DNA of 42,790 bases. Source: an uncultured Bacteroidota bacterium (GTDB lineage: Bacteria > Bacteroidota > Bacteroidia > Bacteroidales > P3). The stretch lies in assembly GCA_902778925.1 (NCBI GenBank), contig CACYZN010000031.1, positions 485 through 43,274 on the forward strand, given 5' to 3'. Below are positions 2,481-42,630 of the stretch, piece after piece; positions within the stretch are counted from its first letter, which is position 1; each line of letters starts with the position of its first letter. The notes beneath the pieces were generated by a model. That model did no database searches and was not told where the DNA came from. It worked only from the letters and a program-made list of their open reading frames with translations. The translations under genes were made by a program, and so were the position numbers.

Positions 2481-2562
2481 GGTCCGTATCCGCTCCGTAT
2501 TTGGTCCGTATCCGGTCCGTATCAAGTCCGACTATTGCCGGTTTTGATGCGGAGAGGATACG
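2481..2562. repeat. 11-bp-period array A (unit GGTCCGTATCC) with an inverted copy
   Basis: Five units follow one another with an exact period of 11: 2481, 2492, 2503, 2514 and 2525. The units are GGTCCGTATCC, GCTCCGTATTT, GGTCCGTATCC, GGTCCGTATCA and AGTCCGACTAT. At 2550-2562 lies an inverted copy (12 of 13 bases) of 2486-2498, so part of the element can fold back. It fills the space between the ends of the converging GtrA and GH3 genes. The last three units recur, with 2 changes in 33 bases, at 14558-14590. Confidence 0.85.
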
Positions 2563-2601
2563 TCTGTGGAGCGAGGTGGATGCAGGGATGGTGGGCAGTG
2601 G

Positions 2602-3729
2602 CTAGCGTAGGACTACCTTGAGGGAACGCACGCGGTCGGCGCTGCGCCGCAGACGGGCAGCGTCGATGGTGCCGTCGGCCACCATCTGCTTAATTACTTG
2701 TACCGTGCGCGGAACCATGTCGGGGTTGTAGGTACCGCCGTTATTGCTCAAGCACAGCAGGTCGGCACCGGCAAGGACGGCCATGCGGACGGCTTGGTCG
2801 AAACTATATTGGCTAACTATGGCGCCCATAGCAAGGTCGTCGGTCACTATTACGCCTTGGAAACCAAGGCTGTCGCGCAGCAACGAGGTGATGGCAGGCG
2901 AGAGGGAGGCGGGCAGACCCGCGGGGTCGAGACGACGGTTGATGACATGGGCCGTCATAACCATCGACGTGGCCAAGTCGAGGCGACGGTAGGGGTCAAG
3001 CTCGCAAGACTGCCATGTGGCACTCACATCGACGAGGCCCTTGTGGGTGTCGCCACTGGCGCTACCGTGACCGGGGAAGTGCTTTAGGCAAGTAGCCACA
3101 TGGTGACGCGCCATCTCGCTGCTCCACAGCTCGCAGCAGTGCCTCACCCGCTCGGCGTCGGGGGCGAAGCTGCGCTCCAAGGCGCCTATCACCGGACACT
3201 TAGGGTTGACGTCGACATCGGCCACGGGTGCGAAATCGAGGTCGATGCCCACCTCGACGAGCATCTGTGCGGTCATGGCGGCGTAGTGGCGCAGGCTGTC
3301 GTCGTCCATGGTACCGAGGCGCTTGGCCGAGGGCAGGCGCTGGAAACCATAGCGGGGGCTGAGGCGGCTCACGTAGCCGCCCTCCTGGTCGACGCCCACA
3401 AGGAGGTCGGGACGGATGGCTCTCAGCTGGCGGCAGAGTTCGCCCAGCTGGTCGGCGCTCTGTATGTTGCGGCCTCGTGTGCCGGTCGGCACGTCGTAAT
3501 CGAACAGTATCACCGAGCCAACGCGGTATTGCTGCAGGTCACGGACCACGTGGTTGGCCGAGTCAATAGTCGTGCCGCGAAAGCCGACGAGGAGCATCTC
3601 GCCGATGTCGTCGTCGAGGGTATACACGGGTTCGGCAGCCGACAACGTGTCGGCGGCACCGGCAGCGGTGGGATGCTGGGTGCAGGCGGCCAGACCCAAC
3701 AGGGTAGCCAAGGTGAAAAGTATCTTCAT
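2602..3729 (-). CDS. glycoside hydrolase family 3 lipoprotein, beta-N-acetylhexosaminidase (NagZ-like)
   Basis: 375 residues. A lipoprotein signal ends L-A-A-C with Cys16. A single GH3 (alpha/beta)8 domain follows. The NagZ motif K-H-F-P-G-H-G-S-A-S-G-D-T-H provides the His of the Asp-His general acid-base pair, and V-I-V-T-D-D-L-A-M-G-A contains the nucleophile Asp. The likely role is removal of N-acetylglucosamine from muropeptides or other beta-linked GlcNAc at the cell envelope. The ATG overlaps the recR stop (ATGA), so it is translated with recR. Substrate is inferred from the motif only. Confidence 0.85.
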   Translation of the reverse strand: MKILFTLATLLGLAACTQHPTAAGAADTLSAAEPVYTLDDDIGEMLLVGFRGTTIDSANHVVRDLQQYRVGSVILFDYDVPTGTRGRNIQSADQLGELCRQLRAIRPDLLVGVDQEGGYVSRLSPRYGFQRLPSAKRLGTMDDDSLRHYAAMTAQMLVEVGIDLDFAPVADVDVNPKCPVIGALERSFAPDAERVRHCCELWSSEMARHHVATCLKHFPGHGSASGDTHKGLVDVSATWQSCELDPYRRLDLATSMVMTAHVINRRLDPAGLPASLSPAITSLLRDSLGFQGVIVTDDLAMGAIVSQYSFDQAVRMAVLAGADLLCLSNNGGTYNPDMVPRTVQVIKQMVADGTIDAARLRRSADRVRSLKVVLR

Positions 3730-4343
3730 TGTTCGAAAGGAATACGGTTGGCAATACTGCGGCCGAGGGTAATCTCATCGGCATACTCGAGGCTGTCGCC
3801 CACGGCCACACCGCGCGCCAAGGTGGTCACACGCACGCCGTAAGGCTGCAACAGCCGGTTTATGTAGTAGTTGGTCGTGTCACCCTCCATCGTGGTCGGG
3901 AGAGCCAGAATCACCTCGTCGACGGCGTAGGGGTTGCCAGTGGCCACGCGGTCCACAAGCGATGCAATCTCCAGGTCGTGCACCCCGATACCATCGATTG
4001 GCGAAATCACACCGCCCAGCACATGGTATAGCCCACGGTACTGCTGGGTATTCTCTATAGCCATCACGTCTTGCACATTCTCCACAACACACACCAAGCC
4101 GCGCTGGCGCTTCTCGCTGGCACAGATGGGGCATATCTCGGTGTCGCTCAAGTTGTGGCAATGGCGGCAGCGGTGCAGATCGGTCTTAAGGCGCACCATG
4201 GCATCGGCCAGATCGCGCACCGATCCCTCGTCGCGTCCCAGCAGGAAGAGAGCATAGCGTAAGGCAGACCGCTTGCCCACACCAGGCAAGGTGGCCAGTT
4301 GGTCGACTGCAGTTTGCAATATCTTCGAAGGCAGGTCAGTCAT
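3726..4343 (-). CDS. recR: recombination protein RecR
   Basis: 205 residues, normal RecR length. Order of parts: helix-hairpin-helix near residues 10-30 (L-P-G-V-G-K-R-S-A), the four-cysteine zinc motif C59-x2-C62 ... C71-x2-C74, the Toprim domain beginning L-V-C-V-V-E-N, and the C-terminal stretch T-T-L-A-R-G-V-A-V-G-D-S-L-E-Y-A-D that is typical of the family. RecR works with RecO and RecF to load RecA on gapped DNA. It overlaps its neighbours on both sides (8 and 4 bases). Confidence 0.95.
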   Translation of the reverse strand: MTDLPSKILQTAVDQLATLPGVGKRSALRYALFLLGRDEGSVRDLADAMVRLKTDLHRCRHCHNLSDTEICPICASEKRQRGLVCVVENVQDVMAIENTQQYRGLYHVLGGVISPIDGIGVHDLEIASLVDRVATGNPYAVDEVILALPTTMEGDTTNYYINRLLQPYGVRVTTLARGVAVGDSLEYADEITLGRSIANRIPFEQ

Positions 4344-4587
4344 CTGTCTTCTTCGCCTCGTTCATCTTGTCCCGCAGGTCGGCTATCTTGGCGGCAGCCT
4401 CAGCCTCACGCTTGCGAATCTTCTCACGCGAATTGTGGCCCAGAGCCATAACCGCCGCAATTATCACAAAGACCACGAGCGCCACGGTAATCACCACCTT
4501 CACAGCCACGGCCAGTTTAAGCATAATTACAGCCACCACATCGGCCAGCAGCAGTGCAAAGAACATCTGCCATCCTAAATTCTTCAT
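4336..4587 (-). CDS. small membrane protein of unknown function
   Basis: 83 residues from the ATG at 4587; a longer reading frame to 4719 exists but its extra part runs into the tRNA terminator and looks non-coding. Two hydrophobic segments (about 6-27 and 30-49) are followed by a charged, probably coiled-coil tail rich in Lys, Glu and Ala. It overlaps the recR start by 8 bases, so it is the first gene of the recR operon. I do not recognise a family. Confidence 0.65.
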   Translation of the reverse strand: MKNLGWQMFFALLLADVVAVIMLKLAVAVKVVITVALVVFVIIAAVMALGHNSREKIRKREAEAAAKIADLRDKMNEAKKTDD

Positions 4588-4731: not shown

Positions 4732-4740
4732 CTAAGGGAG

Positions 4741-4814: not shown

Positions 4815-4818
4815 AACG

Positions 4819-9389: not shown

Positions 9390-9420
9390 GTTTCCGCCCA
9401 GTTTCCGCCCTTTTCCGCCG
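9390..9420. repeat. short 11-bp-period array C (GTTTCCGCCCA)
   Basis: GTTTCCGCCCA (9390-9400) and GTTTCCGCCCT (9401-9411) follow each other exactly, and a third CCGCC core comes 10 bases later. It lies 78 bases to the left of array D in the same 335-bp gap between the zapB-like gene and mazG. The stretch between C and D (9421-9497) is pyrimidine-rich and holds no gene. Confidence 0.6.
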
Positions 9421-9497
9421 ATGGCCGTTTTTAGCCCTTTTCGCAACAGCCTCATTACCAGCCTCCCGCCGCTTCCTCTCCTCTTCCCCTCCGGTAG

Positions 9498-9588
9498 TTC
9501 TTATGTCGTTCTTATGTATTTCTTATGTATTTCTTATGTTTTAAACATAAATACAACATAAGAAATACATAAGAACGACATAGGGGAG
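9498..9588. repeat. 11-bp-period palindrome D (unit TTCTTATGTAT)
   Basis: Four units start at 9498, 9509, 9520 and 9531, exactly 11 apart (TTCTTATGTCG, TTCTTATGTAT twice, TTCTTATGTTT). Inverted units follow at 9556, 9567 and 9578. The arms 9505-9528 and 9556-9579 are a perfect 24-bp inverted repeat. The centre holds a second palindrome of 17 bases (9534-9550). It lies 3' of mazG and upstream of the zapB-like operon. The central 12-mer TTCTTATGTTTT (9531-9542) recurs in the centre of palindrome E. Confidence 0.9.
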
Positions 9589-13323: not shown

Positions 13324-14355
13324 TCAGGCCTCGTCCTGTTTCTCTTTGAGGGCGGCACGTATCTTGGTCTCCAGCTCCTCGCACAGTTCGGGATTGTCGC
13401 GCAACAGCTGCTTCAAGGCTTCACGACCCTGGGCCAGTTTGCTCTCGCCGTAGCTGAACCACGAGCCGCTCTTGTGGATAATGTCGAGGTCGACACCGAT
13501 ATCGATTATCTCGCCCAGTTTCGAGATGCCCTCGCCAAACATGAGGTCAAACTCGCACTGGCGGAATGGCGGTGCCACCTTGTTCTTGACGATGCGCACC
13601 TTGACGCGGTTGCCGATGTTCTGGTCGCCATCCTTTATGGCCTGGACGCGGCGTATGTCGACACGGACCGAGGCATAGAACTTCAAGGCATTGCCACCGG
13701 TAGTGGTCTCGGGGTTGCCGAAGAGGATGCCTATCTTCTCGCGCAACTGGTTGATGAATATGCAGCAGCAGTTGGTTTTGCTTATGGTGGCAGTGAGTTT
13801 GCGCATGGCCTGGCTCATAAGGCGTGCCTGGAGACCCACCTTGCTGTCGCCCATGTCGCCGTCGATTTCGGCTTTCGGGGTGAGGGCGGCCACCGAGTCG
13901 ATGACTATGATGTCGATGGCACCCGAACGAATCAGGTTGTCGGCTATCTCGAGGGCTTGCTCGCCATTGTCGGGCTGCGAGACAAGCAGGTTGTCGATGT
14001 CGACACCGAGCTTTTTGGCATAGAAACTGTCGAAGGCATGCTCCGCATCGATGAAAGCAGCAATACCGCCCGTTTTCTGGCATTCGGCTATGGCGTGGAT
14101 GGCCAACGTGGTCTTACCGGAGCTCTCGGGGCCGTAAATCTCTATAACCCTGCCGCGAGGGAAACCGCCTACGCCCAGGGCATTGTCGAGGCTGATGCTG
14201 CCTGTCGAGATGACATCCAGTTGATCGTTGGGGCGGTCGCCGAGTTTCATTATAGAGCCTTTGCCGTAGCTCTTCTCTATCTTGTCGAGTGTGCTCTGCA
14301 GTATCTTTAGTTTTTCCTGCTTTACAATGTCGGCTTCATTAACTTCTTTTGCCAT
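13324..14355 (-). CDS. recA: recombinase RecA
   Basis: 343 residues. The ATG at 14355 is used; an upstream TTG at 14364 is in frame but less likely. Walker [10 protein letters not shown] near residue 75, the region [11 protein letters not shown], Walker B-type [10 protein letters not shown], and the loop 2 region [14 protein letters not shown] are present. It drives strand exchange in recombination and the DNA damage response. It is the first gene of recA-OMP-relA/spoT-mazG. No SOS box could be recognised. Confidence 0.97.
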
Positions 14356-14411
14356 AACTATCAAATATTTAATGTTATTGTACTTGCTTGTTGTGTCCGA
14401 TTAGACAACTG

Positions 14412-14419
14412 CAAAGGTA
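14412..14419 (-). promoter_or_regulatory. -7 box of the recA promoter
   Basis: On the minus strand TACCTTTG followed by CA, a match to TAnnTTTG, 56 bases upstream of the recA ATG. The -33 region is AT-rich without a clear TTTG. Confidence 0.55.
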
Positions 14420-14546
14420 CATATTTTTTTTGAAATACACATAGCCATATGAAAAAATACTTTGCAGAACACCGGGGCCTGTCTGCGGGATGCCTGGCCA
14501 CCAGGTGGTTTCCCATGCCTCGGCCCCACCACCCCCCTCCGAGTCC

Positions 14547-14590
14547 GGTCCGTATCCAGTCCGTATCCGGTCCGTATCAAGTCCGACTCT
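14547..14590. repeat. 11-bp-period array B (unit GGTCCGTATCC)
   Basis: Four units with an exact period of 11: GGTCCGTATCC, AGTCCGTATCC, GGTCCGTATCA and AGTCCGACTCT at 14547, 14558, 14569 and 14580. The last three are nearly identical to the last three units of array A, 12 kb away. It lies between the divergent recA and xer genes. A C-rich run (CCCCACCACCCCCCTCC, 14525-14541) precedes it. The rest of this 389-base gap holds the two promoters and nothing else I can name. Confidence 0.8.
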
Positions 14591-14703
14591 CGCCGTACAA
14601 AATACGTTCCGCACACACCGCCGGAACAGCTGGCAAACGCTCCGGCTGGCAGGGAGGAAGCGGCACATTGTTTTCGGATTAGAGCCTTTGCGACGAAAAA
14701 AAG

Positions 14704-14734
14704 TTTCATCGCATCGTTTTTTTTACTATCTTTG
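14704..14734 (+). promoter_or_regulatory. promoter of the xer-hpf-pgm run
   Basis: TATCTTTG (14727-14734) preceded at 19 bases by TTTC (14704-14707), one base off TTTG. It ends only ten bases before the ATG at 14745, so the transcript would have almost no leader. Confidence 0.6.
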
Positions 14735-14744
14735 CAGTCAGATT

Positions 14745-15641
14745 ATGACAATAGAAGAAGCCATAGAGCGGTTTCGTACCTATATCGCGACCGAGAGGCG
14801 TCTGGCAGCGGGCACCGTCGACAACTATGTCCGCGACCTTCAAGACCTCGCAGCATACCTGAAGCAGATGGACGTGGTAGAGATGGACGACCTCACGGCA
14901 CGCGACCTGCGGGCGTGGGAGATGGTGCACATGGAGAGCGGCGAGAAAGCCGGCACTGTGAAGCGGAGGCTTTCATCGGTGAGCAGCTGGCTGCGCTATC
15001 TACGTCTACATGGTTACTACCAGCACGACCTCATGTCGAAAGTGTCGGCTCCTCGTCAACCCAAACGGCTGCCGGTATTCTTCAAAGAGAGCGAGTTGGA
15101 GCATCTCTACGACGAAGGCCTCTTTGCGGACGACTTCGAGGGGCGGCGCGACCGGCTTATGCTGCGCATGCTCTATGAAACAGGCATACGTCGCTCCGAG
15201 CTGGCCGGTCTTCGAGACAACAGTGTGGACCTGCAGCGGCTAACCCTAAAAGTGCTTGGCAAACGCAACAAGGAAAGGCTTATACCTATAGAAAATGAGT
15301 TGGCACACAATATTTCCGAATACCTTTCGTTAAAGCGGCAGACCGTGGGTGAAACGGAATGGCTATTCGTCACAAAAGAAGGAAGCCAGATTACGGCCAG
15401 CATAATATACAAGCGAGTGAAGAAGTACATGACTGGCCTCACCACCGCCGACAGAGTGTCGCCGCATGTGTTTCGCCATAGCTTTGCGACACACATACTG
15501 AACCAAGGCGGCGACCTGGTGGCCATCAAAGAACTACTAGGCCACGAAGACCTGTCGACCACCGAGGTGTACACCCATGTGACCCGCGAGCACCTGAAAG
15601 ATGTGTACCGGCACGCACACCCTCGCGGCAGAAAGAAATGA
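14745..15641 (+). CDS. tyrosine recombinase, XerC/XerD type
   Basis: 298 residues, the normal Xer length. An N-terminal SAM-like core-binding domain (about 1-85) is followed by the catalytic domain with all six active-site residues: Arg149 (E-T-G-I-R-R-S-E-L), Lys173 (G-K-R-N-K-E-R), His241 and Arg244 (H-V-F-R-H-S-F-A-T-H), His267 (L-L-G-H) and the nucleophile Tyr276 (T-E-V-Y-T-H-V). Such enzymes resolve chromosome dimers at dif with FtsK. Context (hpf and a sugar mutase, no mobile genes) favours a housekeeping Xer over a phage integrase. Whether it is XerC or XerD cannot be settled here. Confidence 0.93.
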   Translation: MTIEEAIERFRTYIATERRLAAGTVDNYVRDLQDLAAYLKQMDVVEMDDLTARDLRAWEMVHMESGEKAGTVKRRLSSVSSWLRYLRLHGYYQHDLMSKVSAPRQPKRLPVFFKESELEHLYDEGLFADDFEGRRDRLMLRMLYETGIRRSELAGLRDNSVDLQRLTLKVLGKRNKERLIPIENELAHNISEYLSLKRQTVGETEWLFVTKEGSQITASIIYKRVKKYMTGLTTADRVSPHVFRHSFATHILNQGGDLVAIKELLGHEDLSTTEVYTHVTREHLKDVYRHAHPRGRKK

Positions 15642-18827: not shown

Positions 18828-21407
18828 TTAGCTGCACTTGCTCCAGCCGCAGTTGGGGCAACTCTTGCAGCCGTCGACGTAGACCAGCTTGCTGCCGCAG
18901 TCGGGGCACACCTCGCCGGTCTCGGTGCCGTCTTTGATATAGCGCTTCAGCGCGCGCGCCACGCCGTTGCTCCAGGTGGTGATGCTGTCGGTGTCGAAGG
19001 TAAGTTTGCCGATGAGCTCGACCACGTTGGGTATGGGCATGCCGTGGCGCAGGATGCCGGATATGAGCTTGGCGTAGTTCCAGTACTCCTTGCGGAACAT
19101 GCGCGAGAGGCCCTCGATGGTGATGTGGTAGCCATCCTGGTCGGTGAACTGGAAGTCGTAGCGGGCGTGCTCCTGGCCTTTCTCCTTGACGCGGATTACC
19201 CAGCCCTTCTCGACGTTCCTTGGCAGCAGGAAACTCTCGGCGCGACCGGTGAAGATCTCGTAGGGACGGCCTTCGTACATGCCGACCACAGCAATCCAGT
19301 CTTCCTTCTCGTTCTTGAAGCGCACCACCTCGGCCTCCAGCTTCCTGGGGCGTTTGGGGGCTTTGCTCTCGCCGAAGCAGGGGTTGTCCTTCTTACCTTC
19401 GTTGTTGCTCACCAGCACGCCTGTGCGCGAGCCGTCGCGGTAGATGGTGCAGCCTTTGCAGCCATACTCCCAGGCCGTCTCGTATATCTTGCTCACCACC
19501 TCCTTGGTGGTCTCCTTGGGTATGTTGACGGTGACCGAAATCGAGTGGTCGACCCACTTCTGTATGGCGCCCTGCATCCTGACCTTGGCCACCCAGTCGA
19601 TGTCGGCGCTGGTGGCGTGGAAGTAGGGGCTCTTCTCGACGAGGGGCTGCAGCTCGGCGTCGGACATCTGCTTCACCTGCTCCACGTCGTAGCCGTTGAC
19701 GGCGGCCCAGGTGAGGAACTTGGGGTGGAAAACATTGTACTCCTCGAAATAGTCGCCGTTCTCGTCCTTGATGATGTTGTGGCCGCCGGGTTGGGTGCCG
19801 GTCTCGGGGCGGTTTATTTTCTTGCGGCGCTTGTAGCTCACCAGGAATACGGGCTCGATGCCGCTGGTGGTCTGGGTGCAGATGCTCACGGTGCCGGTGG
19901 GGGCGATGGTGAGCAGTGCTATGTTGCGTCGGCCGTACTTGGTCATCTCCTTGTACAGCTCTGGGTCGAAGTCGGCCAGGCGACGTATCAGGGGGTTGTT
20001 CTCCTCGCGCTTGGCATTGTATATGGGGAAGGAGCCGCGCTCGCGGGCCATCTCGACGCTAGAGGCGTAGGCCGAGCGGCAGAGCTCGCGCTGCACGCCG
20101 ACGGCAAACTCGGTGGCCTCGTCGGACCCGTATTGCAGGCCCATGGCGGCCAGCATGTCGCCCTCGGCGGTGATGCCGAAGCCGCTGCGGCGACCTTCGA
20201 GGCATTTCATCTTGATGTTGAGCCACAGGTTGTGCTCCACTTGCTTGATTTCGTCGCTCTCGGGGTCGTTCTCTATCTTGTGCAGTATCTGTTCCACCTT
20301 CTCGAGCTCGAGGTCAATCAGGTCGTCCATCAGGCGCTGGCCTTTGCGCACATGCTCGCGGAAGAGGTCGTAGTCGAAGCGGGCCTCCTTGGTGAAGGGT
20401 TTGTCGACGTAGCTGTAGAGGTTGATGGCCTGCAGACGGCAGCTGTCGTAGGGGCAGAGGGGTATCTCGCCGCAGGGGTTGGTGCTGACGGTGCGGTAGC
20501 CGAAGTCGGCATAGCAGTCGGGCACCGACTCGCGCAGTATGGTGTCCCAGAAGAGCACGCCGGGCTCGGCCGAGCTCCAGGCGTTGGCTATTATCTTGTT
20601 CCACAGCGCGCGGGCGTCGATAGTCTTGGTGTATATGGGGTTGGGCGAGTCGATGGGGTACTGCTGCACGAAGGGTTTGCCCTCCATGGCGCAGCGCATG
20701 AACTCGTCGGTAATCTTCACACTGACGTTGGCGCCGGTGATCTTGCCTTGCTCGAGCTTGGCGTCGATGAAATTCTCCGAATCGGGATGCTTGATGCTGA
20801 TGGAGAGCATCAGTGCACCGCGCCGGCCGCCCTGGGCCACCTCGCGCGTGGTGTTCGAGTAGCGCACCATGAAGGGCACTATGCCCGTCGAAGTGAGAGC
20901 CGAGTTCTTCACGGGGCTGCCGCCCGGGCGTATGTGGCTCAGGTCGTGGCCCACGCCGCCACGACGCTTCATGAGCTGCACCTGCTCCTGGTCGATCTTC
21001 ATGATGCCGCCGTAGGAGTCGCTGTTGCCCGAGTTGCCGATGACGAAGCAGTTGCTGAGCGACACCACCTGATATGAGTTGCCTATGCCGCTCATGGGGC
21101 TGCCCTGTGGCACTATATACTTGAAGTCCTTCAGCAGCTGGTATATCTCCTCCTCGCTCATAGGGTTGGGGTACTTGCGCTCGATGCGCGCATACTCGGC
21201 CGCCATGCGGCGGTGCATCATGTCGGGGTTGAGCTCGAAGATGCGCTCGCCGTCGCGCAGCGCATACTTGTTCATCCACACATTGGCCGCCAGCTCGTCG
21301 CCATGGAAATACTCCACCGACGAACGCATGATCTCATCCGTTGTGTACTGCTTCATTTCCTTGCGCTCCTCGACGGGAGCCACTGCCGAAAACAAGTCGC
21401 CTTGCAT
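18828..21407 (-). CDS. nrdJ: adenosylcobalamin-dependent (class II) ribonucleotide reductase
   Basis: 859 residues. The catalytic ten-stranded barrel shows S-L-S-N-C120 (redox cysteine), N-P-C-G-E-I-P-L (radical cysteine region), and A-P-T-G-T-V-S. The C-terminal tail has two C-x2-C pairs (C-P-D-C-G and C-P-N-C-G) that re-reduce the active site. It makes deoxyribonucleotides using coenzyme B12, with or without oxygen. It is transcribed alone. I see no cobalamin riboswitch in the roughly 200 bases upstream. The gap upstream holds the large palindrome E. Confidence 0.95.
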   Translation of the reverse strand: MQGDLFSAVAPVEERKEMKQYTTDEIMRSSVEYFHGDELAANVWMNKYALRDGERIFELNPDMMHRRMAAEYARIERKYPNPMSEEEIYQLLKDFKYIVPQGSPMSGIGNSYQVVSLSNCFVIGNSGNSDSYGGIMKIDQEQVQLMKRRGGVGHDLSHIRPGGSPVKNSALTSTGIVPFMVRYSNTTREVAQGGRRGALMLSISIKHPDSENFIDAKLEQGKITGANVSVKITDEFMRCAMEGKPFVQQYPIDSPNPIYTKTIDARALWNKIIANAWSSAEPGVLFWDTILRESVPDCYADFGYRTVSTNPCGEIPLCPYDSCRLQAINLYSYVDKPFTKEARFDYDLFREHVRKGQRLMDDLIDLELEKVEQILHKIENDPESDEIKQVEHNLWLNIKMKCLEGRRSGFGITAEGDMLAAMGLQYGSDEATEFAVGVQRELCRSAYASSVEMARERGSFPIYNAKREENNPLIRRLADFDPELYKEMTKYGRRNIALLTIAPTGTVSICTQTTSGIEPVFLVSYKRRKKINRPETGTQPGGHNIIKDENGDYFEEYNVFHPKFLTWAAVNGYDVEQVKQMSDAELQPLVEKSPYFHATSADIDWVAKVRMQGAIQKWVDHSISVTVNIPKETTKEVVSKIYETAWEYGCKGCTIYRDGSRTGVLVSNNEGKKDNPCFGESKAPKRPRKLEAEVVRFKNEKEDWIAVVGMYEGRPYEIFTGRAESFLLPRNVEKGWVIRVKEKGQEHARYDFQFTDQDGYHITIEGLSRMFRKEYWNYAKLISGILRHGMPIPNVVELIGKLTFDTDSITTWSNGVARALKRYIKDGTETGEVCPDCGSKLVYVDGCKSCPNCGWSKCS

Positions 21408-21607
21408 GACTTCAAAATTTGTTTTATGTTACACTCATACTGGTTGTTGCCGCGATACCGGGGGCCACAAATCCAGTCGCTAAATTACCAAGAAAAACCA
21501 TTCCGGCACCAACAAGTTATCAACACCCGCCCCCTCGGAAAGCCCACTCCACAGACTGCTCGCCGACTTGCATTGTTGAAAACCGTCGCGCCACCCGCCG
21601 GCCTTTA

Positions 21608-21699
21608 CCCCACCCCTGCCCGTCCCCCACCCCTGCCCGTCCCCTCCCCCACCGCTCGCCCACCCTTCCGCTCCCCTTCCGCTCCGGTCCCCCTCCGGC
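21608..21699 (-). other. G-rich tract with G-quadruplex potential upstream of nrdJ
   Basis: On the minus strand there are at least eight runs of three to five G separated mostly by one or two bases. A 17-bp unit is repeated in tandem (21608-21624 and 21625-21641), and near 21664-21685 a CTTCCGCTCC unit repeats with period 11. The tract lies between palindrome E and the nrdJ start. Most of 21408-21607 shows nothing I can name. Confidence 0.6.
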
Positions 21700-21809
21700 C
21701 GTTGTACTATCGTTGTACTATTGTTGTACTATTGTTGTACTATCGTTCTTATGTTTTCAATAGTACAACGATAGTACAACAATAGTACAACGATAGTAGT
21801 ACAACGGCC
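21697..21809. repeat. 113-bp palindrome E built from 11-bp units (GTTGTACTATC/T)
   Basis: Four units start at 21701, 21712, 21723 and 21734, exactly 11 apart. After a 14-base centre (21745-21758) come four inverted units at 21759, 21770, 21781 and 21792, the last with a 3-bp insertion. GGCC closes both ends. The arms (48 and 51 bases) differ by two single-base changes and the insertion. It lies between divergent nrdJ and the PorE-like gene, about 200 bases from the latter. The centre contains TTCTTATGTTTT, identical to the centre of palindrome D. Confidence 0.92.
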
Positions 21810-21891
21810 GGACCGGGTCCCTGCCGGAAGAGGAGAGACAAGGGGCGTGAGGGGGTGAAAAAGGCCGCCAAAGGTATTTTGGCAACATTTT

Positions 21892-21923
21892 TTTGCCCAG
21901 ATAAAAAAAAAGTAGTAATTTAG
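21892..21923 (+). promoter_or_regulatory. probable promoter of the PorE-like gene run
   Basis: TTTG (21892-21895), 20 bases, then TAATTTAG (21916-21923), one base off TAnnTTTG. It lies about 87 bases before the ATG at 22011. Confidence 0.5.
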
Positions 21924-22010
21924 CACACCGAATGAACCCGCTGTGCAGGTGCTTAAAGCACGCACAACGAGTTGATTATGGCATTTATAACATAGCATAC
22001 CAAAAGCAAA

Positions 22011-24758
22011 ATGGCACAAATGAAGACCCTCACCAAAGGACTAATACTGCTGGCGACAGCCCTCATGGTCGGCACCGGCGCTTTCGCGCAGAAGAAAAGC
22101 ATAGCGCAGAAAGCCGACGACCTGTTCGACCAAAACCGCTTCGTCGAAGCCGCCGTGCAATACGAGGCAGCCTACGAAAAAATCAAGGACAACAAGGCCG
22201 AGAAGAACCGCGTCTACTTCCAGCTGGCCGAGTGCTACCGCCTGATGTACAACTATCAGCGTGCCGAACGCATATACAAACGCCTCGCCGCCGACGGCTA
22301 CTACACCACCGAGCCCATGCTCTACTTCAACCTGGCCGAGATGTGCCGCTTCGAGAACAAATTCTCCGAGGCCGACGAATACTACGAGCTCTACCTCGCA
22401 GCCAACCCCTCCGACACCTACGCCGCCAAGCGCAAGTCCTCGCTCATCTACGCCAACCAGCTCTACAACAACCCCACCCGCCACGAGATACAGAAAATGA
22501 CCGAGTGGTGCACCGACTTCAACGACTGGGCACCCCGCTTCATAGGCAACGACACCACCAAGATCGTCTTCACCAGCTCGCGCTTCCCCGAAGGCGAAGC
22601 CCTCGACGCCGACCCCTGGACCAACCAGGCCTTCTCTGACTTCTACTACCTCTTCCAGGATCGCAACGGCGACTGGGTGTCGCACCCCGAATCCTGGGAC
22701 CGCACCGGCAAGATAAACACCGCCGTCAACGAAGGCGAAGCCTGCTTCTCGCCCGACGGCAACACACTCTACTTCTCGCGATTCGACATCGTCGACAACG
22801 AGACGTCTCACGCCCGCATCTACATGGCCACCCGCACCCCGGCCCAGCTCGAGAGCAAGAAAGACAAAAAGAAAGCCTCGGCCAAACCCAGAAAGACCAA
22901 GAAAAAACCGCAGGCCGACGACGAAACACCAGCCACCGGCTCGGAGACCCCGGCCGGTGAATGGAGCGACCCCGTGCCCCTCAACCTCGGCGACACCACC
23001 TACAACTACCTCTACCCCGCCATCAGCAGCGACGGACTGACGCTCTACTTCTCGAGCGACATGCCGGGCGGCTTCGGCGACTACGACCTGTGGAAGGTCA
23101 CACGCGCCTCGACGGCCGACGACTTCGGGCGCCCGGTCAACCTCACCTCCGTGGTCAACACCCGCGGCAAGGAGGTCATGCCCGTGCTCCGCGGCGACAC
23201 GGTGATGTACTTCTCGTCCGACGGCCACCCCGGCGTCGGCGGCTACGACCTCTTCCGCACCCACCTCAAAGCCAACGGCAAGTGGGACTTCCCCGAGAAC
23301 CTCGGCATCCCCATCAACTCGTCCTACGACGAGATGTCCATCGTCTTCTACCCCGACGACGCACTGCCCCGCAACATCATCGAGCGCGGCTTCTTCTCGT
23401 CCAACCGCCCCTTCGACGCACCCCACAGCAAGAAGGACGCCAACCAGAATAAGAACCAGACTCCCCCCATCAACAACAACATCTTCTACTTCGCACTGCC
23501 CGGCCTCAACTACGCCATCGAAGGCACCGTGCGCAGCGAGAAGTCCATGCAGCTGCTCAAGGACGTGCGCGTCAAGCTCGTGGGCTCCGACGGCACCGAA
23601 AGCGAGACCCGCACCGACAAGCGCGGCCACTACAGCTTCGACAGCACCGTGGTGCGGCGCGACGTGGTGTACAAAATCTACCTCTCCAAGAAAGACTACT
23701 TCAGCATCGAAGGCTCCGAGAGCACCAAAGGCTACACCACCAACAAGACCCTCGTGCACGACTTCCGCATGAACCCCGTGCCCACCCGCCCCGTGGTACT
23801 GCCCGAGATACGCTTCGACCTCGCCAAGGCCGACCTCAAGGGCGAGTTCATGGACTCGCTCATGGACCTCTACCTCGTCATGGAGAACAACCCCAATATC
23901 GTGGTCGAGATACGTTCGCACACCGACTGCCAGCCCTACATAGGCCTCACCAACGACACCCTCTCGCAGCGCCGCGCCCAGACGGTGGTCGACTACCTTG
24001 TGAACCGCGGCATCGAACGCGACCGCCTAGTGGCTAAAGGCTATGCCGACCGCATACCCCGCACCCTCGACGAGGACGTCACGGTGGTCTACAACGGCAA
24101 GCCCTACCGCTTCTCGGCCGGCTCGGTCATGGAGTGCGACTACATCAACACCCTCAGCGGCGACCGCCAGCAGGCGGCCCACTCGCTCAACCGTCGCATG
24201 GAGTTCCTCGTGCTGCGCACCGACTACGTCTCGCGCCGCCTGGTCGACAACATGCCGTCGTCCAACCCCACTGTGAAACAAACCGAAGACGGTAAGATTG
24301 TGGACCTCGTGAATCACCCCGACGACGACTTCGACGAGGTGAAGCCCACAATCGTACACGACGAGAGCGTGGTGCCCGTCACCATGGTCAACTCCACCCG
24401 CGGCGAGATACCGGCCATCATCAATGGCTCGCAGATGCCCATGCTCATCGACGAACGCTTTGCCGAGCCCGTGGCCATAGCATGGGAAGAGGCCATGAAC
24501 CTCCTCTATCAGGGCCGCATCACCAAGGACGACTTCCCGCGCCGCGACCTCTCCTTCGACCCCGAAGGCAACATTCTCGACAAAGAGATTGTCATCTTCA
24601 AAGAGATGCAAATCGGCGAACAGCGCGTGCAGAACATCGAGGTGGTGGTGGTGAAGAACGTCGACTACCGGTTCATCATCAACCGCATCGGCCTGCAGCA
24701 GTTTGGCGACTACGAGTTCGACAAGCAGCGCGCCAAGCTCATCTTCTTTGATGAGTAA
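22011..24758 (+). CDS. PorE-like TPR/beta-propeller/OmpA-domain protein with a retropepsin-like tail
   Basis: 915 residues. Parts in order: signal peptide (1-26, ends A-F-A-Q); TPR-like helices (about 27-150); a PD40-type beta-propeller (about 165-500, with repeated F-S-P-D-G-N-T-L-Y-F-S and S-S-D-G-L-T-L-Y-F-S); a carboxypeptidase-regulatory-like domain (about 505-580); an OmpA peptidoglycan-binding domain (about 596-730, with R-S-H-T-D and S-Q-R-R-A). This is the layout of PorE, which anchors the type IX secretion machine to the wall. An extra C-terminal domain (about 798-915) resembles an aspartic protease of retropepsin type, with L-I-D-E-R in place of D-T-G. There is no lipobox. The propeller has a Lys/Pro-rich insert near 280-310. 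Confidence 0.82.
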   Translation: MAQMKTLTKGLILLATALMVGTGAFAQKKSIAQKADDLFDQNRFVEAAVQYEAAYEKIKDNKAEKNRVYFQLAECYRLMYNYQRAERIYKRLAADGYYTTEPMLYFNLAEMCRFENKFSEADEYYELYLAANPSDTYAAKRKSSLIYANQLYNNPTRHEIQKMTEWCTDFNDWAPRFIGNDTTKIVFTSSRFPEGEALDADPWTNQAFSDFYYLFQDRNGDWVSHPESWDRTGKINTAVNEGEACFSPDGNTLYFSRFDIVDNETSHARIYMATRTPAQLESKKDKKKASAKPRKTKKKPQADDETPATGSETPAGEWSDPVPLNLGDTTYNYLYPAISSDGLTLYFSSDMPGGFGDYDLWKVTRASTADDFGRPVNLTSVVNTRGKEVMPVLRGDTVMYFSSDGHPGVGGYDLFRTHLKANGKWDFPENLGIPINSSYDEMSIVFYPDDALPRNIIERGFFSSNRPFDAPHSKKDANQNKNQTPPINNNIFYFALPGLNYAIEGTVRSEKSMQLLKDVRVKLVGSDGTESETRTDKRGHYSFDSTVVRRDVVYKIYLSKKDYFSIEGSESTKGYTTNKTLVHDFRMNPVPTRPVVLPEIRFDLAKADLKGEFMDSLMDLYLVMENNPNIVVEIRSHTDCQPYIGLTNDTLSQRRAQTVVDYLVNRGIERDRLVAKGYADRIPRTLDEDVTVVYNGKPYRFSAGSVMECDYINTLSGDRQQAAHSLNRRMEFLVLRTDYVSRRLVDNMPSSNPTVKQTEDGKIVDLVNHPDDDFDEVKPTIVHDESVVPVTMVNSTRGEIPAIINGSQMPMLIDERFAEPVAIAWEEAMNLLYQGRITKDDFPRRDLSFDPEGNILDKEIVIFKEMQIGEQRVQNIEVVVVKNVDYRFIINRIGLQQFGDYEFDKQRAKLIFFDE

Positions 24759-38709: not shown

Positions 38710-39198
38710 TCACTTCTCAGCAAAGCGCTTCAACGCCGTCTCGTCAAGCCGTTGCACCGTCCACTCGTCCATCGGTATGGCACCTATGCTGCGGTAGACC
38801 TTCAGGGCCGGCTGGTTCCAGTCGAGGCATATCCACTCCATGCGGCCGCAGTTGCGCTCCACAGCCAGCTGCGCCAGGTGCTTCAGCAGGGCTTTCCCAT
38901 AGCCACGGCCGCGTTTCTCTGGCACTATGAAGAGGTCTTCGAGGTAGAGCCCTTTGCGCCCCACGAAGGTGGAGAAGTTGTGGAAGAACAGGGCGAAGCC
39001 TATCACCACACCATTTTCTTCGGCGAATAGCACCTCCGCAGAACGCTCTACGAAGAGCGAGTGATACAGCGTTGCCTCGTCAGCCACCACTTCGTCGGCA
39101 CATTTCTCGTATGCCGCCAGTTTCTTGATGAATTCCAGCACAAGGCCCGCCTCATCGGCCCTCGCCGGACGTATATTGAACTTTCCTTCCATAATCAT
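38710..39198 (-). CDS. GNAT family N-acetyltransferase
   Basis: 162 residues (a second ATG lies two codons later). The fold marks are present: F-N-I-R-P-A-R-A-D-E-A at the start, L-E-D-L-F-I-V-P-E-K-R-G-R-G-Y-G-K-A-L-L for the acetyl-CoA-binding loop, then W-N-Q-P-A-L-K-V-Y-R-S-I-G-A. It resembles diamine or thialysine acetyltransferases of this length; the substrate is a guess. Its stop overlaps a possible GTG start of the ThrE-like gene. Confidence 0.88.
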   Translation of the reverse strand: MIMEGKFNIRPARADEAGLVLEFIKKLAAYEKCADEVVADEATLYHSLFVERSAEVLFAEENGVVIGFALFFHNFSTFVGRKGLYLEDLFIVPEKRGRGYGKALLKHLAQLAVERNCGRMEWICLDWNQPALKVYRSIGAIPMDEWTVQRLDETALKRFAEK

Positions 39199-39226
39199 TA
39201 ACCATTAATCTTTAACCATTAACCAT
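39190..39226. repeat. 7-bp-period array between the YdeI-like and GNAT genes
   Basis: On the coding strand AATGGTT AATGGTT AAAGATT AATGGTT AATGATT ATGG. It supplies the last codons of the YdeI-like gene (M-V-N-G and stop), the gap, and the start codon of the GNAT gene. Confidence 0.75.
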
Positions 39227-39802
39227 TTCACATAGTTCGTCTTCCCTGATGATCTTCGGTGCCGCCTTTCCGGCCAGCACCAGCACTTTCTTCCCGTTAC
39301 GGTAGATATGCAGCTGCCGCGAGCGCACTACGGCCGTCAGCTCTGGGTCATCCTGCATCGCCAGCCATAGGCGATGGTATTCGCCATTCTCGTCGAACAG
39401 CTTCCGCTGCAGGTGCGAGCACATATTTGTGGTATCGATAGTCATCATTCTTCGGAATTCATTATTCACTATTGGCAACGCCTTTCTTCCAGCCTCTGTC
39501 ATCAAGCCCCGTTGCTCCAGTTCCATGCACCGATCTTGGTTGCGCTCTGTCCAGTGGCTATTCTTCCTTCGCGGCGAGAGGCGCTGAGCCAATCGCCCGT
39601 CGGGCAGCCGCTTGCAGGTGGAGTCAATCCATCCATAGCAGAGCGCCTCCTCCACAACCTCCACATACGGCAGCGCGTCGGCCATCGGCTGCCGTCCGCG
39701 ATAGGTAGCTACCCACACCTCGCGCTCCTTCTGGTGGTTCTTCTCCATCCAGCTGCGCAACACCGTTCGGTCGTCCGTTTCCATGAGGGTCGTTATCTCC
39801 AT
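39212..39802 (-). CDS. YdeI/OmpD-associated family protein
   Basis: 196 residues. V-V-E-E-A-L-C-Y-G-W-I-D-S-T, R-L-S-P-R-R-K-N-S-H-W-T-E-R-N and the following helix with M-T-E-A-G are the hallmark of the family. Some members protect against antimicrobial peptides; for most the role is unknown. The C-terminal third differs from the standard form. It is cytoplasmic, and is seven bases after the flavodoxin-ferredoxin gene. Confidence 0.85.
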   Translation of the reverse strand: MEITTLMETDDRTVLRSWMEKNHQKEREVWVATYRGRQPMADALPYVEVVEEALCYGWIDSTCKRLPDGRLAQRLSPRRKNSHWTERNQDRCMELEQRGLMTEAGRKALPIVNNEFRRMMTIDTTNMCSHLQRKLFDENGEYHRLWLAMQDDPELTAVVRSRQLHIYRNGKKVLVLAGKAAPKIIREDELCEMVNG

Positions 39803-39809: not shown

Positions 39810-40640
39810 TTATTTTATCGTTTCTGCCACAAAGAACTCCGCCTGATTGGGGGCGGCGAAGGTGCGCTCAATCATGGCCACATGCGAGAGGTACTCGGGG
39901 TCGGTGAAGGCGATGGCACCGGTCGGGCAATGACGGCGGCAGGCCTGGCACTTGATGCAGATGCCGTCGAAGGCCGGCAATCCATCTTGCTCTCCTATGC
40001 TCCCCATAGGGCATATCTCCTGGCACTCGCCGCAACGCGTGCACAACCCGCTGTTGCACGAGGGTTTCGCTTTGAGGAACCCCGCGGGGGCGTTGTTGGT
40101 CTTCAGGGGGGTATAGTATCTCTCGGGATGCGCCTCGCCGGGAACGTCGATAATTGACAGTTGAGAGTTTATAGTTGAAAGTTTCTCCGCCACCTGTGCG
40201 GCGAAACGGTCAAGCTCCGCGAGGTCCTCTTCGTTAGGCCGTCCTGCACCAAGGGTGTCGCTGAAAACGTGGCGCGTCACCATAGCGGCGGCGCCGACGG
40301 GCCGCATACCGCCCTCCTCCATCAAGCCCACCAACTCGGCCAGCGCGTTGTCGTAGGCGCGGTTGCCGAAGGTGACGAGCGCCACAGCCGGATTGCCGTC
40401 GGCACGTAAAGCTCGCCGCACATAGTCGAGCGTCTTGTTGGGTATGCGTCCCGCATAGACGGGCGTCGCCCACACGACGACATCACCCGCCTCCACCTGT
40501 GGCAGCGTCTCGCGCTCACGCGGCAGGGTGTAGGAATGATACTCCACCTCGGCATCCAGCAGCGCACCCAGCCGGTCGCCCAAGTGCTGCGCCACCTGCC
40601 ACGTGCCTCCCGTAGGGCTGAAATAGAAGACCCTGATCAT
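39810..40640 (-). CDS. EFR1-type flavodoxin-ferredoxin fusion protein
   Basis: 276 residues. The N-terminal flavodoxin-like domain starts F-Y-F-S-P-T-G-G-T (phosphate loop for FMN) and has W-A-T-P-V-Y-A-G-R-I-P. The C-terminal part holds two [4Fe-4S] sites, C-T-R-C-G-E-C-Q-E-I-C-P and C-I-K-C-Q-A-C-R-R-H-C-P. Such proteins pass electrons in anaerobes. The linker between the domains contains L-S-T-I-N-S-Q-L-S-I-I-D, which is the translation of a heptamer repeat (40149-40184). Confidence 0.88.
   Translation of the reverse strand: MIRVFYFSPTGGTWQVAQHLGDRLGALLDAEVEYHSYTLPRERETLPQVEAGDVVVWATPVYAGRIPNKTLDYVRRALRADGNPAVALVTFGNRAYDNALAELVGLMEEGGMRPVGAAAMVTRHVFSDTLGAGRPNEEDLAELDRFAAQVAEKLSTINSQLSIIDVPGEAHPERYYTPLKTNNAPAGFLKAKPSCNSGLCTRCGECQEICPMGSIGEQDGLPAFDGICIKCQACRRHCPTGAIAFTDPEYLSHVAMIERTFAAPNQAEFFVAETIK
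40149..40184. repeat. 7-bp-period array inside the flavodoxin-ferredoxin gene
   Basis: On the coding strand CAACTAT AAACTCT CAACTGT CAATTAT. It is translated in frame within the linker of the fusion protein. Repeats of this look (S-T-I-N-S-Q-L-S) are common in Bacteroidota proteins as I recall. Confidence 0.7.
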
Positions 40641-40654
40641 ATCAATTTCTTAAC

Positions 40655-41134
40655 TTAAAATCTGCGGGTGCGACGACAATATTCCTTGTATTCGTCGCCA
40701 AAGTCACGTTGCAGGCGCCGTTCCTCGCTGATAACCTGCACCAGCATGATGGCGAAGAAGGCCACCCACACCAGTGCCGCCTGCCAGGTCCACAGCCACA
40801 CCACGCACCCAGCCAGGAAGGTCAGCGTGCCGGTGAGCATCGGGTTGCGGTTGAGGCGATAGGGGCCGTCGGTCATCAGGTGCTGCGTGCGCGGCGCCAC
40901 CTCGTGGCCGAAGGCGTCCATCGGGTTGCCCTTGCCGCGACGTTTCATATAGACAATCGTCCAGATGCTCAGCGACAAACCGCCAACCATAAGCACTCCC
41001 GTAATCACCGCCTTCAAGGCTCCGATGTGCACTATTGGCGACATTCCCGATGCCAGCCACATCACCGCCGGCATCAGCACCACGAAAAGCAACGCGCCCA
41101 GCAGATATCCAAATATTTCTTTCAAAGTTTTCAC
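40655..41134 (-). CDS. isoprenylcysteine/phospholipid methyltransferase family membrane protein
   Basis: 159 residues with four to five hydrophobic segments. The G-P-Y-R-L-N-R-N-P-M-L-T-G motif and the C-terminal S-E-E-R-R-L-Q-R-D-F-G-D-E-Y-K-E-Y motif are shared by the ICMT/PEMT-type methyltransferases. It probably methylates a membrane-bound substrate with S-adenosylmethionine. It lies between the flavodoxin lipoprotein and the flavodoxin-ferredoxin gene. Confidence 0.87.
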   Translation of the reverse strand: MKTLKEIFGYLLGALLFVVLMPAVMWLASGMSPIVHIGALKAVITGVLMVGGLSLSIWTIVYMKRRGKGNPMDAFGHEVAPRTQHLMTDGPYRLNRNPMLTGTLTFLAGCVVWLWTWQAALVWVAFFAIMLVQVISEERRLQRDFGDEYKEYCRRTRRF

Positions 41135-41161
41135 ACTTCCGTCATTTTTCCCGGCACCCCA

Positions 41162-41920
41162 TCATTGTGTTATAACACCTTCCGCCATCTTCCTTCCCGC
41201 CTCGAAGGCCCGCTGCAGGTCCTCCTGCCAATGCTCGTCGCGATAGCGGCGCTTGGCCTCTTCCGAGAAACCGCCAAGCTCGAAGCGGCTGTAGGCATTC
41301 ACCTGGTAGGTGTTGTAGGCATTCACGTGCGTAGGCTGCCCGAGGGCGCCGGCTATGCAATGCTCCATCGAGCCGTAGCCGTTGCTGTTGTTCCGCTCGG
41401 GCGTGCCGTTCATCGTCTCCATCAGCACCACGGGCATCCGCTTCGGTGCCGTAAGGCTATAGTCGTTGTACGAGAGCCAGGGGAACGCCAGCCGCTCCAG
41501 GAAGGTGCGCATCTGACCCGTCACATCGCCAAAGTATATCGGCGAGCCCAGCACCAGGCCGTCAGCCTGCGCTATCTCCTCCAATACGGGAGTCAGCGCA
41601 TCCTTGTAGCGGCACACGTTCGAGGCCTTGCCCTTCACTTTGCAGGCCATACACGACATGCAGCCCTTGTAGTCCATGTCGTACAGGCGCACGGTCTTCA
41701 CTTCAATCTGGTCACTGACAGAACTCGCCCCTTCGGCGAACTTTTGCAGCATCGAGGCCGTGTTGAAATTCTTACGCGGACCTCCGTCGATAATCATTAT
41801 CTTTTTCATATTTTGAGTATTTGTTGTCCCTTCACCATTTGCGCCAGAGGTCTGGCTCTTGTCGCCGCATCCGGCCATCAACGCCATAGCAGCACACAAT
41901 GCGAGTATTGCCTTTTTCAT
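41162..41920 (-). CDS. NADPH-dependent FMN reductase/flavodoxin family lipoprotein
   Basis: 252 residues from the ATG at 41920. Residues 1-18 form a lipoprotein signal (A-L-M-A-G-C18), followed by a Gly/Thr-rich spacer and a complete flavodoxin-like domain beginning K-K-I-M-I-I-D-G-G-P-R-K-N-F-N-T. It has the cysteine pattern C-M-S-C-M-A-C and G-S-P-I-Y-F-G-D-V-T-G of iron-sulfur flavoprotein relatives. Relatives are usually cytoplasmic; here the protein would be anchored outside the inner membrane. An internal ATG at 41809 would give a cytoplasmic version. First gene of the seven-gene minus run. Confidence 0.82.
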   Translation of the reverse strand: MKKAILALCAAMALMAGCGDKSQTSGANGEGTTNTQNMKKIMIIDGGPRKNFNTASMLQKFAEGASSVSDQIEVKTVRLYDMDYKGCMSCMACKVKGKASNVCRYKDALTPVLEEIAQADGLVLGSPIYFGDVTGQMRTFLERLAFPWLSYNDYSLTAPKRMPVVLMETMNGTPERNNSNGYGSMEHCIAGALGQPTHVNAYNTYQVNAYSRFELGGFSEEAKRRYRDEHWQEDLQRAFEAGRKMAEGVITQ

Positions 41921-41996
41921 AGTTTTAAATGTTTTTGTCTCCAAAAATCCACCGTCACCCAGACCCTCCTCCTTTTTCAAAATAAAAATACAATTG

Positions 41997-42027
41997 CAAA
42001 GATACACATTTTTCGCGAAACGGCAAA
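41997..42027 (-). promoter_or_regulatory. promoter of the flavodoxin-to-EEP gene run
   Basis: On the minus strand TTTG (42024-42027), 19 bases, then TATCTTTG (41997-42004). Exact match to the consensus. The leader to the ATG at 41920 would be about 70 bases and contains an AAGGAGGAGGG stretch far from the start. Confidence 0.8.
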
Positions 42028-42091
42028 ATAAATTCAACCTCGGCAGCAACGCATCCCACCGAACCCCCCATCGGCACACCACCTCTGCCAC

Positions 42092-42630
42092 TCACCTCAT
42101 CACCGACTGACTGACTCTAACGACAGTCACTTTTCGCCAACTTCCATTAACATAAAAACTGTTAATTCGGGTCGATCTTTTGGCCTTAAAGCTCGTATTG
42201 GAAATCAATCAGTTGCAGCGATATTTTAACATATAACACTCTGTATCAGTGGATAGTAGCCGACAAACAAACACTTAAGTGCCTATGACACAGCACCATC
42301 TCCTTATCAACTCCTACTCAAAGCCTAATCATCGCCTTATCAACTCCAACTATAGTAAGAAATGTTAAATTTTACATTATGTGATAAACCATTTTTGATA
42401 TGTTTTTCATACCTGCTCATCCCCTACCATACCCTTCCTTGCCCCCTCTTGGTCCAGACCACCTCCACCGTCCTGCACAAGTGGATAATCGGCATGATGC
42501 AGAAAGGCTCCTTCATGCATCTCTTTTTTCCACAATATGAAAAAATATCACAACAATCCCTTTTATCATCTTTGAATATTCACTTTGTGGCTGTTTTCCA
42601 TCTGGTTATATGGATAGCCGCGAAATAAAT
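42092..42630. other. long intergenic region upstream of the pyruvate oxidoreductase gene
   Basis: About 540 bases without a gene I can support. It holds a 10-bp palindrome CACTTAAGTG (42272-42281), array F (42302-42356) and AT-rich DNA. An 88-codon frame at 42362-42628 has no credible protein pattern. Confidence 0.6.
42302..42356. repeat. 11-bp-period array F (CCTTATCAACT)
   Basis: Units start at 42302, 42313, 42324, 42335 and 42346: CCTTATCAACT, CCTACTCAAAG, CCTAATCATCG, CCTTATCAACT and CCAACTATAGT. The first four share CCTNNTCA; the first and fourth are identical. No inverted copies were found. Confidence 0.65.

What the first reader, a model, noticed from the sequence alone, without database searches (positions are those of the whole stretch)
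2481..42356. A family of intergenic arrays with an 11-bp period
Six separate intergenic sites (2481-2535, 9390-9420, 9498-9588, 14547-14590, 21697-21809, 42302-42356) carry tandem units spaced by exactly or almost exactly 11 bp. The unit sequence differs between sites (except A and B), but the period is kept. Eleven bases is about one helical turn, so all copies would face the same side of the DNA. That suggests a protein or bending element that needs phasing, or a replication process with an 11-bp step. I know of no described element like this.
Basis: partly seen in the sequence, partly recalled or inferred. Interest (0 to 1): 0.78.

Follow-up and report, generated by a model that had tools for sequence, protein, structure and literature searches.

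The report
Intergenic site arrays phased at 11 bp
Gaps between genes in this bacterium and its sister species carry rows of short DNA motifs repeated at exactly 11 bases; the motif changes from species to species while the 11-base step stays, which looks like landing sites for an unidentified protein that grips the DNA once per turn.

Summary
In the window plus 398 kb of its genome, 40 arrays have lag 11; all lie between genes by my gene calls, and 20 dinucleotide shuffles give none. Five of the six named sites stand up; 9390-9420 is weak. Main types: A, direct rows of TCCGTATC + 3 nt (16 sites); B and C, head-to-head palindromes of TTCTTATG and GTTGTACTAT units (107 and 31 centres). Nine of ten same-genus genomes sampled hold arrays, mostly with other units but the same period; period 7 is also raised in this genus.

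Three results shape the mechanism. Variation between A units sits mainly in a 2-nt spacer. Downstream of 19 A arrays is a hidden inverted arm in which little but CG is kept, in register every 11 bp. In B, variable spacers of the two arms do not match. Together these favour sites bound once per turn by an oligomerising protein over RNA hairpins, cruciforms or slippage. B/C favour divergent gaps (34 of 55). B and C were evidently copied around the genome; no mover and no binding protein was identified. My searches of open papers found no description.

The parts
2479..2532 (+). Type A array: (G)TCCGTATC units every 11 bp, ending in TCCGAC at 2527-2532; between convergent genes (GtrA-domain gene 2021-2443 + and glycoside hydrolase 3 gene 2602-3729 -)
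2533..2575 (-). Hidden inverted arm of this type A array: CG at 2539, 2550, 2561 and 2572, exactly 11 bp apart, otherwise little unit similarity
   Evidence: positions read from the sequence; statistics over 19 arrays
9390..9420 (.). Short TTCCGCC-like run, weak period 11 (2.8 copies; lags 21 and 10 also high); doubtful member
9494..9588 (-). Type B palindrome: two opposed arrays of TTCTTATG + spacer units around an asymmetric centre (TTGTATTTATGTTTAAAACATAA on the - strand), about 40 bp after the mazG stop
14538..14587 (+). Type A array in the divergent gap 14356-14744, upstream of a tyrosine-recombinase (Phage_integrase) gene called at 14745-15641 +
14588..14606 (-). Hidden inverted arm: in-register CG at 14594 and 14605; the next two expected positions are not CG
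   Evidence: positions read from the sequence
21608..21697 (.). Pyrimidine-rich outer arm beside the type C element, with 11-, 16- and 17-bp periods
21698..21810 (+). Type C palindrome: two opposed arrays of GTTGTACTAT(C/T), centre holding one B-type unit (GTTCTTATG), in the divergent gap 21384-22019
42297..42356 (+). Degenerate array resembling type A units of sister species (TATCAACTCCTACTCAA ...)

Best explanation
Each array is a row of short binding sites (a conserved core of about 9 bp in A and B, 10 in C, plus a free spacer of about 2 or 1 bp), one per 11 bp; in the own genome's main types a second row faces it in the opposite direction. A small DNA-binding protein would bind the sites cooperatively, one subunit per step, and build a filament on both arms from the centre outwards, in the manner of BldC or ParR on direct repeats. 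B and C copies, mostly between divergent promoters, would act as silencing, insulating or DNA-organising platforms; A copies, often soon after stop codons, as a second set. Shown: exact 11-bp period, intergenic restriction, phase-locked spacers in A and B, dyad arrangement of own A, B and C, in-register CG in the hidden arm of A, many B and C copies sharing one centre each, different units in sister species. Inferred: that a protein binds, that it forms a filament, what the bound arrays do. The protein is not identified.
For: Departures from consensus among 78 A units fall mainly in the spacer (positions 9-10 hold 85 of 184, chi-square P 4e-23; information 0.09 and 0.50 bit against 1.5-1.8 for TCCG and 0.9-1.1 for TATC); 55 B units next to an anchored unit vary in two adjacent positions (units are related and the B set was chosen by similarity, so these P values overstate). 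After the TCCGAC that ends 19 A arrays, information is 1.0-1.9 bit at +7/8, +18/19 and +29/30 and 0.5-1.6 bit at +40/41 and +51/52, with most positions between, beyond +11, below 0.5. Leaving out the first inverted site, 54 of 124 CG fall in one of 11 registers; rotated controls have 18.4 in their best register and 0 of 5000 reach 54. The consensus ACGG there is the dyad partner of CCGT in the other arm (my reading). Flanks beyond the arrays keep lag 11 in own (0.373, other lags 0.295, sd 0.012) and in ten sister genomes (0.364, others 0.280, sd 0.011), not in 67 array-free gaps (0.263) (for palindromes the flank can include the other arm). B/C lie in divergent gaps in 34 of 55 placed cases against 29 of 103 gaps of 150 bp or more (P 7e-5). 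GTTCTT recurs three times at an 11-bp step, with species-specific bases between, in 30 of 119 same-genus genomes, reversed control in 3.
Against: No binding protein was identified. Genes facing B/C elements show no shared function: the commonest Pfam families hit 3 of 86 proteins. Only 2 of 14 informative relatives have a lag-11 array in the stretch after mazG, where the window has B, so single sites look dispensable. 107 B centres share one asymmetric sequence, so part of the uniformity of B is common descent, not selection. In 89 of 119 same-genus genomes the GTTCTT pattern is absent, and G016 of ten sampled genomes has no array in its 100 kb. Many sister arrays show no strong second arm (34 of 44). 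BldC sites are 9 bp, not 11.
Confidence: 0.5

Rival explanations
1. B and C are non-autonomous mobile elements (MITE- or REP-like); the 11-bp units are binding sites for the protein that moves them, and the host gains nothing. Unit turnover follows changes in that protein.
For: 107 B centres share one asymmetric sequence and 31 C centres another, within one mismatch, so they were evidently copied. 12 of 14 informative relatives have no lag-11 array after mazG (the next gene often differs, so these are not strict empty sites). Match counts differ enormously between sister species (0 to 351). Two opposed rows of sites resemble sub-terminal transposase sites (recalled).
Against: No sharp ends: similarity fades outwards, and I saw no target duplication when reading the copies (no formal test). 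RAYT transposases (PF01797) are not found in the own genome (93% complete); of the 11 same-genus RAYT loci scanned (30 matches in all), 2 have a lag-11 array, about 0.35 and 1.3 kb away. No other transposase family was searched. The one closely spaced inverted pair of B copies examined shows no obvious transposase between, by eye.
Confidence: 0.27
2. The palindromes act as RNA hairpins or extruded cruciforms; 11 bp is one turn of A-form double-stranded RNA (recalled).
For: The window's B and C fold with z -11 to -15.5; strong inverted repeats in 18 of 40 own and 10 of 44 sister lag-11 arrays against 0 of 55 array-free gaps; divergent gaps, where negative supercoiling is expected, are favoured.
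Against: Where spacers vary, the two arms of B do not match more than chance (9 of 27, expected 10.3; 5 of 18, expected 4.7); for C, and for the innermost level of B, the test has no power. No excess of G.U over A.C (B 8 and 9; C 8 and 39, the latter mostly one fixed mismatch). The window's A arrays fold weakly (z -3.5 and -0.8), most sister arrays are not strongly palindromic, and the hidden A arm keeps only a few bases per turn. B/C lie at least about 100 bp from the nearest facing start codon in the placed cases.
Confidence: 0.12
3. Neutral minisatellites: polymerase slippage makes rows of 11-bp units that later decay.
For: Unit copy number varies, and several copies show duplicated or truncated centres.
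Against: In the own genome only 11 and its multiples stand out, in the genus only 7 and 11 with their multiples, not a spread of periods; departures in A are concentrated in the spacer; the hidden arm keeps mainly CG in register.
Confidence: 0.08

Closest known systems
BldC family direct-repeat binding (Streptomyces; PMC5859096, passages seen)
   Same: Site of about 9 bp in tandem, variable number of repeats, protected tracts one helical turn apart, head-to-tail cooperative filament
   Different: BldC repeats are 9 bp with an AATT core and few per site; no opposed second row or dispersed copying in the passages seen; no protein identified here
ParMRC centromere parC of plasmid R1, 11-bp repeats (PMC9426499, passages seen)
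   Same: Direct repeats of 11 bp; repeat sequence and spacing differ between systems
   Different: One plasmid locus of a partition system; here scores of chromosomal sites
BrickBuilt MITE of Porphyromonas gingivalis (PMC4596501; abstract, section 7 part 1 of 2 and section 8 read)
   Same: Bacteroidetes, intergenic, tandem units inside a dispersed element, predicted long stem-loops
   Different: 23-bp units, IS5-like terminal inverted repeats on some copies, 19 copies, limited to Porphyromonas; no 11-bp step
PINSR repeat of Prevotella intermedia (PMC4755523; passages and section 3.4 read)
   Same: Intergenic, lineage-specific, 177-184 copies, function unknown, no terminal inverted repeats
   Different: 188-bp consensus; no tandem 11-bp units described in the section read
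TAACTGA heptamer direct repeats (PMC4679880; abstract and section 12 read)
   Same: Intergenic tandem rows of a fixed short period, some in Bacteroidetes, unknown function
   Different: Period 7, one motif, mostly just upstream of start codons in the Beggiatoaceae genome; the period-7 rows seen in this genus are the nearer match

Membership tests
REP/RAYT palindromes | A RAYT transposase (Y1_Tnp) in the genome, flanked by the palindrome | tested here: not met
   No PF01797 match in the own genome (93% complete); arrays within 1.5 kb in only 2 of 11 same-genus RAYT loci scanned, none of them B or C type
MITE such as BrickBuilt | Terminal inverted repeats matching a resident insertion sequence, with target duplications | tested here: inconclusive
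   Palindromic throughout, but ends fade; no search for a matching insertion sequence was made
MITE such as BrickBuilt | Dispersed copies from one ancestor | tested here: met
   107 B and 31 C centres within one mismatch; not shown for type A
BldC-like site array | Tandem sites with a conserved core once per turn and free spacer | tested here: met
BldC-like site array | Bound by a BldC-family protein | not testable with these tools
   Needs binding experiments
parC centromere | Next to parM/parR genes | not tested
   No targeted search; the Pfam scan of 86 genes facing B/C elements shows 25 of 152 families, none of them ParM or ParR
Known structured RNA | Match to an Rfam family at its gathering score | tested here: not met
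   Only three tRNAs in the window

The most novel reading that the evidence does not exclude
A genus-wide system in which one oligomerising DNA-binding protein and more than a hundred two-armed arrays per chromosome co-evolve fast: the 11-bp step is kept while the recognised bases are replaced from species to species, much as satellite DNA and its binding proteins turn over in eukaryotes.
Probability: 0.3. Interest if true: 0.87.

Novelty: new variant of a known kind. Interest (0 to 1): 0.68.

Why it matters
Fixed spacing with changing sequence is unusual for bacterial repeats and gives a clean case of a site array whose recognition code may evolve between close species. If a binder is found, the many sister species are ready-made natural variants for reading out how an oligomeric DNA-binding protein changes specificity. 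If the arrays are selfish, they are a high-copy, sequence-shifting repeat family that also seems to break assemblies. In either case scans of intergenic DNA at a fixed lag find features that similarity searches miss.

Tried and rejected
RAYT/REP origin: searched PF01797 in 31 genomes; own genome none, and little link to arrays elsewhere. RNA stem selection: arm-matching and G.U/A.C tests negative for B, uninformative for C. Simple B-DNA phasing or bending: lags 10, 21, 32 not raised in the own genome; in the ten sister genomes lag 10 has 8 segments, lag 21 has 26 (a multiple of 7) and lag 32 has 4. Viral origin: one A and one B pattern absent from viral contigs. Known RNA families: three tRNAs only. 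Regulon of one function: no widely shared Pfam family in 86 facing genes. Autonomous element between a close inverted pair of B copies: open frames that look like serS and other ordinary genes by eye, no family search. Regular spacing of B along contigs: 44 intervals, coefficient of variation 0.74, not pursued. Spread outside the genus: 20 stretches from other families of the order (274 kb) have no lag-11 array; a TCCG-every-11 pattern hits 14 of 295 genomes of the order sample, own included, and its reversed control 10 by my count of the rows, so type A is not shown to be enriched outside the genus, though G304 has a convincing one. A 26-base type-A pattern found three named records: two Bacteroidales MAGs and one Deltaproteobacteria MAG. 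Palindromes are not special to period 11: 10 of 74 period-7 arrays scanned also have a strong inverted repeat. Literature: searches for 11-bp or palindromic intergenic repeats in Bacteroidetes, Prevotella or Bacteroidales found no description (open-licence PMC papers only); the REP and other papers not named above were seen as listings only, and PMC11963761 (RdfS) as passages. The organism's name was not determined; that the order is Bacteroidales is inferred from the array of G085 (same order) being identical to that of the named record L028.
Full report
What was checked. The six named sites were read and scanned for self-similarity at lags 4-44. Four are strong at lag 11 (2479-2530, 9494-9582, 14538-14585, 21613-21798), one is degenerate but above chance (42297-42356, strongest at lag 33), and one is weak (9390-9420). 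In the window plus 20 stretches of the own genome (440,717 bp; the genome is 2.23 Mb in 54 contigs) lag 11 gives 40 segments and lag 22 gives 32, while no lag outside the multiples of 11 exceeds 10. All 40 are intergenic by my gene calls; 20 shuffles of the intergenic DNA give none.

Types. A: direct rows of TCCGTATC + 3 nt; GTCCGTATC twice in tandem matches 27 times at 16 sites in the whole genome. B: opposed rows of TTCTTATG units around an asymmetric centre, 107 centres within one mismatch. C: opposed rows of GTTGTACTAT(C/T), 31 centres within one mismatch, with one B-type unit in the middle. One further long array of another unit lies at L044 8197-8304. The window's B and C fold almost perfectly (z -11 to -15.5); its A arrays do not (z -3.5 and -0.8). 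Copies of B and C differ by lost arm parts and, in a few, doubled centres.

Sister species. Ten same-genus genomes, 100 kb each, have 44 lag-11 arrays (0 to 10 per genome; G016 none), with units that mostly differ from the own ones although type-A-like TCC units recur in several; none lies mostly inside a called gene. In the same megabase lag 7 has 78 segments, so 11 is one of two raised periods in the genus. TTCTTATGTNNTTCTTATGT is found 428 times in the own genome and in only 2 of 98 others. GTTCTT three times at an 11-bp step with free bases between occurs in 30 of 119 genomes, own included, up to 351 matches in one; the reversed control matches in 3 of 119. Corresponding gaps show turnover. 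Upstream of the gene at 13324-14355, where the window has type A, 5 of 13 relatives have a lag-11 array and each is different: a TTGTTCAGTCG palindrome, a TTGTTCTTCGA palindrome, CTGATCAACGC rows, CTCCTACTCAT rows, and a pyrimidine-rich run. Downstream of mazG, where the window has B, 2 of 14 informative relatives have one (GGATGCCTGGG rows; a two-unit run); for a fifteenth the stretch ended inside the gene. The gene on the far side of these gaps often differs, so they are not strict empty sites. In 274 kb from 20 other families of the order lag 11 gives 0.

What is constrained. Among 78 A units the departures from consensus fall mainly in positions 9 and 10 (85 of 184), among 55 B units in two adjacent positions. 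Downstream of 19 A arrays lies a second arm: after TCCGAC the CG at +7/8, +18/19 and +29/30 is mostly present, at +40/41 and +51/52 less strictly, with near-random bases between. In the window the first array has CG at 2539, 2550, 2561 and 2572; the second keeps two of four (read). The consensus ACGG is the dyad partner of CCGT in the strong arm, so own A, like B and C, is two opposed rows. Leaving out the first inverted site, 54 of 124 CG fall in a single register against a mean of 18.4 in rotated controls (0 of 5000 reach it). Beyond the detected arrays the flanks still show lag 11 in both own and sister genomes, and array-free gaps do not; for palindromes this can include the other arm.

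Against pairing. If the palindromes worked as stems, variable bases in one arm should be matched by the other. In B (32 copies) they are not: 9 of 27 and 5 of 18 at the two informative levels, expected 10.3 and 4.7; the innermost level hardly varies. C has no informative level. Mismatches are not skewed towards G.U. What is kept in B is the core of each unit and the step, not the pairing of the spacers.

Place in the genome. I placed 28 of 107 B centres (first contigs of the list) and 29 of 31 C centres; of the latter one fell in a called gene and one at an edge. Of the 55 left, 34 lie between divergent genes, against 29 of 103 gaps of at least 150 bp (P 7e-5); 2 of 55 lie between convergent genes against 10 of 103 (P 0.22). 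In the ten sister genomes 18 of 38 placed arrays (6 at edges dropped) are in divergent gaps against 60 of 255 gaps (P 0.003). Of 18 type A arrays, 6 lie within 35 bp and 10 within 112 bp after a stop codon by my gene calls, while 4 are in divergent gaps. Genes facing B/C elements share no common family (86 proteins).

Mechanism. The simplest reading is a protein that contacts a short core once per 11 bp and assembles on two opposed rows. BldC on 9-bp direct repeats and ParR of plasmid R1 on 11-bp repeats show that such assemblies exist. OmpR-type regulators with an 11-bp step are recalled, not looked up. Placement between divergent promoters would suit an insulating, silencing or DNA-organising role; that is inference. 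B and C also behave like copied elements, so a selfish mover's binding sites are the main rival, held back by the lack of sharp ends and of any mover found, though only one transposase family was searched.

Limits. B copies are related by descent, so P values on B units overstate independence. Only a fifth of the own genome was scanned for lags; whole-genome counts are from patterns. Ten same-genus genomes were sampled for lags over 100 kb each; ten more gave one short stretch each. No experiment was possible.

Noticed in passing
window 39192-39227; L042 15308-15478; L046 8404-8582; sister genomes: Rows with a 7-bp period (units such as TTTTCAA, CTCTCCA, TAACCAT) are as characteristic of this genus as the 11-bp rows: 78 lag-7 segments in 1 Mb of ten sister genomes, 25 of them inside my gene calls. 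They resemble published heptamer repeats.
   Followed up: partly
L044 8197-8304: The highest-scoring lag-11 array of the sample (score 72), made of CTTGGCAACAC and an opposed GCGTGCCACGA row, unlike types A, B and C.
   Followed up: no
G111 and G000 contig ends: Several arrays sit within about the first 100 bases of contigs (among the listed places, G111 contigs 1, 2, 8, 10, 11, 16, 17, 18; own C3 and C28), so these palindromes probably break assemblies.
   Followed up: no
L050 2614-2765, L162, L177, L199: B and C copies with doubled or shifted centres, as might be expected from template switching in a palindrome.
   Followed up: partly
L028, L029, L030: The same GTCCGTATC unit in 11-bp rows in two other Bacteroidales MAGs and one labelled Deltaproteobacteria; in L029 and L030 it appears to lie soon after the end of a reading frame.
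   Followed up: partly
L243 1113-1153 and L234 109-163: Two sister-species RAYT loci have a type-A-like or other lag-11 array about 0.35 and 1.3 kb from the transposase match; too few to call a link.
   Followed up: no
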